From: Desulfovibrio sp. ZJ209
GTDB lineage: Bacteria > Desulfobacterota > Desulfovibrionia > Desulfovibrionales > Desulfovibrionaceae
Reading direction: 5' to 3'
NCBI RefSeq assembly: GCF_011039135.1
Contig: NZ_JAAKEJ010000004.1
Coordinates: 124,001-188,000, forward strand
Length of the DNA: 64,000 nucleotides
The notes beneath the pieces were generated by a model. It searched no databases, had not been told where the DNA came from, and saw only the letters and a program-made list of their open reading frames with translations. The stretch's first letter is position 1. Every line of letters starts with the position of its first letter. The position numbers and the translations under genes were made by a program. Of this stretch, positions 27,232 to 27,853 are shown in pieces.

Positions 27232-27389
27232 CCCGATACTCCTTCTTCCGGTTGCAGAACTTTGCCAGGATGGGCCTGGCAGCCCCAAGTCATGGCCCGG
27301 GCCGGCAAGGGCGCCCGGCACAGGGCGCACACAAGGAAAAGCGGCACCGCCGCCGGCGGCTGCCGGCCGCGTTTGTGATAATTTTGCTT

Positions 27390-27405
27390 AGCACAATCCA
27401 TACCA
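27390..27405 (-). promoter_or_regulatory. Sigma-54 promoter of the dctP operon
   Basis: Minus strand TGGTATGGATTGTGCT: GG and GC separated by 10 bases, matching TGGYAYG-N4-NTGCW. The start site falls near 27379, leaving a 150-base leader before the dctP ATG. Confidence 0.6.
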
Positions 27406-27527
27406 CTCCTTTAAGGCCCCGGTGCCGCGCCCCGCGAGGGGAGCCCCCCGGAAAGCGGCGGTTTTCGGGGCATTGCAGGGGGGCTGGCGCCGGGGGTGGC
27501 AGGGCCTTTGGAGCGGAAGGCGCGAAC

Positions 27528-27549
27528 CATGATTCAAAATTGCAACATG
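27528..27549. promoter_or_regulatory. Palindromic upstream activator site 1
   Basis: Core GATTCAAAATTGCAAC with CATG on each side, an imperfect 22-bp palindrome. It lies about 135 bases upstream of the dctP -24 box and 242 bases upstream of the islA -24 box. Confidence 0.6.
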
Positions 27550-27626
27550 ATGCCGCTCCTGCGGGCACTTTGTGAAAGAATGGAACATGGGCGGTTGAGC
27601 GGCTTCACGGCGGCGACGCGAAAGTC

Positions 27627-27648
27627 GCGTTCCAATATTGAAACATTG
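27627..27648. promoter_or_regulatory. Palindromic upstream activator site 2
   Basis: Core GTTCCAATATTGAAAC, nearly a perfect palindrome. It shares the CAA(A/T)ATTG centre with sites 1 and 3 and is centred 51 bases (five helical turns) from site 3. Confidence 0.65.
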
Positions 27649-27677
27649 AATCCCGCTAAAATTTCAGAAGCACGAAA

Positions 27678-27699
27678 TATGTTCCAAAATTGAACCATG
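27678..27699. promoter_or_regulatory. Palindromic upstream activator site 3
   Basis: Core GTTCCAAAATTGAACC flanked by TATG/CATG, centred 92 bases upstream of the islA -24 box, the usual distance for a sigma-54 activator. Confidence 0.65.
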
Positions 27700-27777
27700 C
27701 ACGGCCGGGAAAGAGCGCGTGCGGCCGAGAAAAAAAACCTGAAAATATTTCTGCCAATAAATCCACAGGGATATTTT

Positions 27778-27794
27778 TTGGCACACGCCATGCA
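27778..27794 (+). promoter_or_regulatory. Sigma-54 promoter of islA
   Basis: TTGGCACACGCCATGCA: GG (27780-27781) and GC (27792-27793) separated by 10 bases, with -24 TTGGCAC and -12 ATGCA. The predicted start near 27805 gives a 49-base leader with GGGAGAGAGA as ribosome site. Confidence 0.8.
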
Positions 27795-27853
27795 AATGCC
27801 GGCGCATGCAACCAAATGTGTGCGACTCACGCACAAACAAGGGAGAGAGAACG

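What the first reader, a model, noticed from the sequence alone, without database searches (positions are those of the whole stretch)
27232..27853. Divergent sigma-54 control region with three palindromic activator sites for isethionate use
Two sigma-54 promoters face outward (27390-27405 minus for dctP, 27778-27794 plus for islA). Between them lie three copies of an imperfect palindrome with core G(A/T)T(T/C)CAA(A/T)ATTGNANC, centred at about 27538, 27637 and 27688; the last two are 51 bases apart and the closest is 92 bases from the islA -24 box. A PAS/AAA+ sigma-54 activator is encoded downstream. This is a complete predicted regulatory circuit for a pathway relevant to gut H2S.
Basis: partly seen in the sequence, partly recalled or inferred. 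Interest (0 to 1): 0.75.

Follow-up and report, generated by a model that had tools for sequence, protein, structure and literature searches.

The report
Isethionate gene switch, already predicted
This stretch of a Desulfovibrio-like genome is a two-way genetic switch for feeding on isethionate (a source of hydrogen sulfide); the switch is of a kind already predicted in related bacteria, but here its control sites have changed at a base that relatives seldom change.

Summary
Three near-palindromes (27531-27546, 27629-27644, 27681-27696) lie between a good sigma-54 promoter for islA (27778-27794 +) and a weaker one for dctP (27390-27406 -). A PAS/AAA+/Fis-type activator (IslR, 31960-33357) is encoded downstream. 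The conserved operator is GNYGCAAAWTTGCRNC, with a site of >=14 bits in 45 of 47 loci; 31 of 47 have a proximal pair 51-54 bp apart. The window fits this layout (98 and 52 bp; 91 bp to the -24 GG), but 5 of its 6 half-sites have lost a G kept in 237 of 246 half-sites of 45 other loci, although the recognition helix is the same in relatives that keep the G. That substitution, and an inverted operator cassette in one relative's draft genome, are the unusual points. Binding was not tested.

The parts
27531..27546 (.). Distal IslR operator (predicted), GATTCAAAATTGCAAC; one half-site keeps the conserved G of GCAA
   Evidence: 18.8 bits with a matrix trained without the window; 98 bp before the next site
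27629..27644 (.). First site of the proximal operator pair (predicted), GTTCCAATATTGAAAC; both half-sites have lost the conserved G
   Evidence: 5.8 bits, 18.2 bits with that position masked
27681..27696 (.). Second site of the proximal pair (predicted), GTTCCAAAATTGAACC; 52 bp from the first, centre 91 bp from the islA -24 GG
   Evidence: 8.9 bits, 21.3 bits with that position masked; spacing
27569..27589 (.). 21-bp block TTTGTGAAAGAATGGAACATG, identical in three close relatives (inverted in one); function unknown, possibly a degenerate fourth operator
27778..27794 (+). Sigma-54 promoter for islA, TTGGCACACGCCATGCA
27390..27406 (-). Weak sigma-54 promoter for dctP, GTGGTATGGATTGTGCT
   Evidence: score 11.5; aligned block conserved in G004 and G066
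27854..30349 (+). islA, isethionate sulfite-lyase (glycyl radical enzyme)
   Evidence: best PDB match 7kq3 isethionate sulfite-lyase, 1534.7 bits, against 1267.7 for 6lon; Q193 present
30526..31482 (+). islB, radical-SAM activating enzyme
31960..33357 (+). islR, sigma-54 enhancer-binding protein: PAS, AAA+ with GAFTGA, Fis-type HTH
26221..27231 (-). dctP (iseP-like), isethionate-binding TRAP subunit
   Evidence: best PDB match 8t9t isethionate-binding DctP, 444.6 bits
24191..26044 (-). Fused dctQM TRAP permease
23303..24139 (-). Amidohydrolase_2 family protein; homologues lie in many of the related clusters
   Evidence: an amidohydrolase gene (DVU2820) is in the predicted DVU2827 regulon
22543..23295 (-). 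TauE/SafE family permease

Best explanation
The 622-bp intergenic region is a shared enhancer for two divergent sigma-54 promoters. IslR, encoded downstream of islAB, binds as dimers to three palindromic operators. When its PAS domain senses a signal (probably isethionate or something derived from it; inferred), its AAA+ domain uses ATP and the GAFTGA loop to open the sigma-54 polymerase complex at islA on one side and at the dctP-dctQM-amidohydrolase-tauE genes on the other, so that uptake and C-S cleavage are switched on together. Shown here by sequence: genes, domains, promoter-like sites, operators and their conserved layout. Shown in print: an islR mutant of D. alaskensis G20 cannot use isethionate. 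Inferred: direct binding, the inducer, activation of both sides by the same sites, and that the window's altered operators still work.
For: Genes and domains. The operator was found without the window: a dyad count in 48 non-redundant islA (>=80% identity) upstream regions puts GCAAA/TTTGC first, in 23 of 48 loci (largest count for any dyad in 10 local shuffles: 3). In 47 same-genus loci the matrix finds >=1 site at >=14 bits in 45 and >=2 in 40; upstream of the related hpsG-type gene the figures are 6 and 0 of 21; 20 column-shuffled matrices find at most 1 site. The two sites nearest islA are 51-54 bp apart in 31 of 47 loci and 41-43 in 5 (window and G004 count as none there because their pair falls below threshold). 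The proximal operator centre lies 91-94 bp from the -24 GG in 25 of the 41 loci that could be measured, 71 in 6, and other values from 81 to 279 in 10. Promoters. One match to the sigma-54 DNA-binding family in this genome. Published.
Against: No binding or expression data. Two of the three window sites fall below the threshold used for the genus because of the lost G. The minus promoter is weak here and not the best-scoring minus-strand site. The genome holds a second activator, 48% identical to IslR, about 5.5 kb from an HpsG-type gene, and at 10 bits the operator matrix hits 13 of 21 hpsG-type upstream regions at least once (1 of 21 at least twice), so cross-talk is possible. Some islA loci lack the motif: L157 and L178 have none at 12 bits, and among 47 GTDB loci with IslA below 80% identity only 15 have the family core within 1 mismatch (30 of 32 at 80% or more; hpsG control 4 of 21).
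Confidence: 0.9

Rival explanations
1. The operators belong to another activator, for example the 48%-identical EBP near the HpsG-type gene, or are shared between the two.
For: Some hpsG-type upstream regions carry a related palindrome such as ATGTTGTAAATTTGCAACAA: 6 of 21 at >=14 bits, 13 of 21 at >=10. The two regulators are paralogues.
Against: No hpsG-type region has two or more sites at >=12 bits, against 40 of 47 islA regions. An islR mutant abolishes growth on isethionate in D. alaskensis.
Confidence: 0.07
2. In this lineage the proximal pair has decayed: only the distal site works and the circuit is weakened or being lost. (Not exclusive of the best explanation, which concerns what the region is.)
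For: Scores of 5.8 and 8.9 bits for the proximal pair. Relative G065, which shares the window's unusual IslR tail, has an islR interrupted by an in-frame stop and no IslA: none within the sequence upstream of its islB on that contig and none above 64% identity at E <= 1e-250.
Against: With the one position masked the proximal sites score 18.2 and 21.3 bits, so the rest is not degraded. The spacing is intact and the window genes are open. G004 carries the same pair. G066 has the same kind of change at its distal site instead.
Confidence: 0.25
3. The palindromes are chance repeats or sites of a repressor unrelated to sigma-54 control.
For: The sequence alone does not name the protein that binds.
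Against: Conservation in number, spacing and distance to the -24 box across most of 47 loci with controls.
Confidence: 0.02

Closest known systems
DVU2827 regulon of Desulfovibrio vulgaris Hildenborough (Kazakov 2015, PMC4641369)
   Same: Single-component sigma-54 activator with predicted sites upstream of the GRE operon DVU2824 (with TRAP genes DVU2822-2823) and a probable effect on the amidohydrolase gene DVU2820, with sigma-54 promoters. That DVU2824 is UniProt Q727N1, the D. vulgaris enzyme shown to be IseG (PMC6453916), is from recall.
   Different: There the enzyme was thought to be a pyruvate formate-lyase. Gene order differs (divergent transporter here). DVU2827 is tabulated with GAFSGA; the window regulator has GAFTGA. 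Its motif is in a figure that was not available to me.
islA/islB/dctP/dctMQ/islR cluster of Desulfovibrio alaskensis G20 and relatives (Peck 2019, PMC6386719)
   Same: Same gene set; islR needed for growth on isethionate.
   Different: Operators were not described in the passages read; the term searches for sigma and promoter found nothing there.
IseP, isethionate-binding TRAP protein of Oleidesulfovibrio alaskensis (PMC11668362)
   Same: Best solved-structure match of the window dctP (8t9t; that this entry is from that paper is inferred from its name).
   Different: Term searches of that paper for regulator, promoter and operon found nothing.

Membership tests
IslR/DVU2827-type sigma-54 regulon | One-component EBP with PAS, AAA+ carrying GAFTGA, and HTH, encoded in the cluster | tested here: met
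IslR/DVU2827-type sigma-54 regulon | Cluster with GRE, activase and TRAP transporter | tested here: met
IslR/DVU2827-type sigma-54 regulon | Conserved -24/-12 promoter upstream of the GRE gene | tested here: met
   42 of 47 orthologous loci have a best site >=13.5 (two of them far upstream); window 16.1
IslR/DVU2827-type sigma-54 regulon | Same operator motif as the published DVU2827 motif | tested here: inconclusive
   Published motif not visible to me and no D. vulgaris Hildenborough sequence was held (one search found no record). Loci L048 (a Desulfovibrio MAG) and L049 (Nitratidesulfovibrio liaohensis) carry GTTGCAACATTGCAAC and GTTGCAGATTTGCAAC before the dctP operon (read by eye); L040 and L046 show only partial GTTGCA arms
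IslR/DVU2827-type sigma-54 regulon | Direct binding of the regulator and loss of induction without it | not testable with these tools
   Only published genetics in another species
Isethionate sulfite-lyase IslA | Closer to characterised IslA/IseG than to HpsG-type enzymes; Q193 | tested here: met
   Q193 is present but the HpsG-type paralogue has Q there too, so it does not discriminate here. The NCBIfam hits contain no IslA model and name it HpsG
Isethionate sulfite-lyase IslA | Cleaves isethionate to sulfite and acetaldehyde | not testable with these tools
   Inferred from homology

The most novel reading that the evidence does not exclude
In this small clade the IslR-operator code is changing at one near-invariant base: window and G004 carry TTCCAA/TTGAAAC-type proximal operators, sister G066 carries one at the distal site, and G076 and G007 keep GCAA. 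The recognition helix reads SRTTIFRKL wherever it could be read (window, G066, G007, G065). So either this helix, changed from the NRSTIFRKL common in the genus, tolerates both forms, or the altered sites tune the response. (Against the helix alone being the cause: L040, L046 and L049 also have SRTT and keep GTTGCA arms.) In one relative (G076) the whole three-operator cassette is inverted, with breakpoints near the outer palindromes, so the enhancer may be able to flip.
Probability: 0.2. Interest if true: 0.5.

Novelty: new member of a known kind. Interest (0 to 1): 0.33.

Why it matters
Isethionate cleavage feeds sulfite respiration and H2S formation in gut sulfidogens, and little was found in print about its control: the searches for islR with isethionate and DVU2827 listed one paper each, both cited here. 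The refined operator and its regular layout give a testable regulon signature for Desulfovibrio genomes. The change at one base, with the same recognition helix, is a natural experiment on how an enhancer-binding protein reads DNA.

Tried and rejected
The literal core as a conserved motif was rejected (exact in 2 of 47 genus loci and 1 of 79 GTDB upstream regions). The single 1-mismatch genome hit (C6:35727) falls at the end of a predicted reading frame and was put down to chance. A wider regulon in this genome could not be shown: the loose palindrome GNNGCAANNTTGCNNC matches exactly at three other places, and within 1 mismatch 76 times per strand against 26 for the reversed control, a list that was cut short in the output and that I did not follow. 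A compensating change in the DNA-reading helix was looked for and not found: residues 463-505 are identical in window, G066 and G007 (G007 differs at 462), and the tail after 505 differs. Helical phasing of the operator-promoter distance is only suggestive (p about 0.05, best period nearer 11.5 than 10.5, rows not independent). Q193 as an IslA marker does not separate IslA from the HpsG-type paralogue. Rows dropped: L034 had no upstream sequence; one of 22 hpsG-type loci (L189) was too short. Fragmentary islA genes in the genus (G015, G020, G052, G066, G074 and others) were left out of the 47 loci; G066 was read separately. The 47 loci come from 46 genomes because G064 gives two. The G065 operator region was not found. 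Papers: PMC8667426, PMC6615313 and PMC9888536 were searched by term only; the first names a PAS-domain regulator gene beside islB in Bilophila, the second has none of the terms, and the passages of the third describe IseG but no operator. One search (invertible, enhancer binding protein, sigma54) listed no paper.

Full report
What is there. The window lies in a 2.70 Mb genome whose nearest named relatives are mostly Desulfovibrio. Between dctP (26221-27231, minus) and islA (27854-30349, plus) is a 622-bp gap. The glycyl radical enzyme is closest to isethionate sulfite-lyase 7kq3 (1534.7 bits) and to 5ymr (1484.9), and less close to 6lon (1267.7). A separate gene in the genome is closest to 6lon (1600.6 bits), which I take from recall to be an HpsG-type structure. 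The TRAP binding protein is closest to the isethionate-binding DctP 8t9t. The regulator has PAS, AAA+ (sigma-54 interaction) and Fis-type HTH domains, its translation contains GAFTGA, and its likely start is the GTG at 31960.

The control region. Three palindromes, 98 and 52 bp apart, lie between a good plus sigma-54 promoter and a weak minus one. Within the window alone neither the loose core nor the loose sigma-54 consensus clearly exceeds chance, so the case rests on comparison. To avoid circular reasoning the operator was sought without the window. In 48 non-redundant upstream regions of islA genes (>=80% identity), a blind count of inverted pairs put GCAAA/TTTGC first (23 of 48 loci; shuffle maximum 3), and several other high-ranking pairs are registers of the same palindrome. 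A symmetric matrix trained on 45 same-genus loci, window and G004 excluded, gives GNYGCAAAWTTGCRNC. At 14 bits it finds at least one site in 45 of 47 loci and at least two in 40; the hpsG-type controls give 6 and 0 of 21 (13 and 1 of 21 at 10 bits), and shuffled matrices at most 1 site. The window and G004 reach the threshold only at the distal site.

Layout. Most loci have a distal site and a proximal pair. The pair is 51-54 bp apart in 31 of 47 loci and 41-43 in 5. The proximal operator centre is 91-94 bp from the -24 GG in 25 of 41 measurable loci and 71 in 6; the window is at 91. These distances hint at helical phasing, but the test is marginal. Divergent dctP or amidohydrolase genes often have their own sigma-54 promoter (18 of 27 loci at >=13.2), so the cassette probably serves both sides.

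What is unusual. With the near-invariant G masked, so that selection does not favour it, 237 of 246 half-sites in 45 loci carry G there, whereas the window carries it in 1 of 6. The rest of each window site still scores 18-22 bits. G004 has the same proximal pair. G066 (IslA 97%) has a TTCCAA/TTGAAAC-type distal site and a GCAA pair. G007 and G076 keep GCAA. IslR residues 463-505 are identical in window, G066 and G007; the G076 regulator is cut at its contig end and G004's was not found, so the comparison rests on few genomes and perhaps two evolutionary events. G065, which shares the window's IslR tail, has a broken islR and no IslA found, which keeps early decay alive as a reading. The sequence cannot decide between relaxed reading and decay.

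Side observations. A 21-bp block (27569-27589) is identical in G004, G066 and, inverted, G076, and is unique in the genome at up to 3 mismatches. In G076 about 154 bp holding the three operators and this block match G066 in reverse (76.6%, E 2.4e-28), with spacings 52+89 instead of 89+52, and 28-nt imperfect inverted repeats at the edges. The contig begins at the cassette and the dctP-side contig ends before it, so an assembly error is not excluded.

Relation to what is known. Kazakov 2015 (PMC4641369; abstract, passages and sections 6, 9 and 13 seen) predicted DVU2827 sites upstream of the DVU2824 operon and its orthologues in five Desulfovibrionales genomes, probably also activating the amidohydrolase gene DVU2820. 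Peck 2019 (PMC6386719; passages seen) found that islR knockout in D. alaskensis G20 abolished growth on isethionate. PMC6453916 (passages seen) reports the D. vulgaris enzyme Q727N1 as the isethionate lyase. The circuit is therefore a new member of a known kind. Paper searches: one search listed 1 paper, one search listed 1, one search listed 15 of 52 (titles and abstract starts seen; one, PMC6615313, term-searched), one search listed 2 (term-searched). None of what I saw describes this operator's sequence or its variation; the library is open-access only and the motif figure and supplements of PMC4641369 were not available to me.

Noticed in passing
window 27569-27589; L218:2054-2074; L181:114-134: 21-bp block TTTGTGAAAGAATGGAACATG identical in window, G004, G066 and (inverted) G076; at least 4 mismatches in the other genomes' loci scanned; function unknown.
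   Followed up: partly
L181:1-190 (G076:C159): Operator cassette of about 154 bp inverted as a unit relative to G066, with 28-nt imperfect inverted repeats at its edges; the draft contig starts there.
   Followed up: partly
G000:C1:380539-382998 and C1:373637-375016 (L161): Second sulfonate-type GRE (best PDB 6lon) with an EBP 48% identical to IslR about 5.5 kb away; some upstream regions of such genes carry a related palindrome.
   Followed up: partly
window 27854-30349: NCBIfam model NF048011 (named HpsG) scores IslA (1558.6) above the HpsG-like paralogue (1511.4), so naming by this model would call IslA an HpsG.
   Followed up: yes
G065:C9:1-5000 (L216, L203): A relative with islB (80%) and an islR (97%) that is interrupted by an in-frame TAG inside the gene; no IslA found upstream of islB on that contig, nor above 64% identity at E <= 1e-250 in the genome.
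   Followed up: partly
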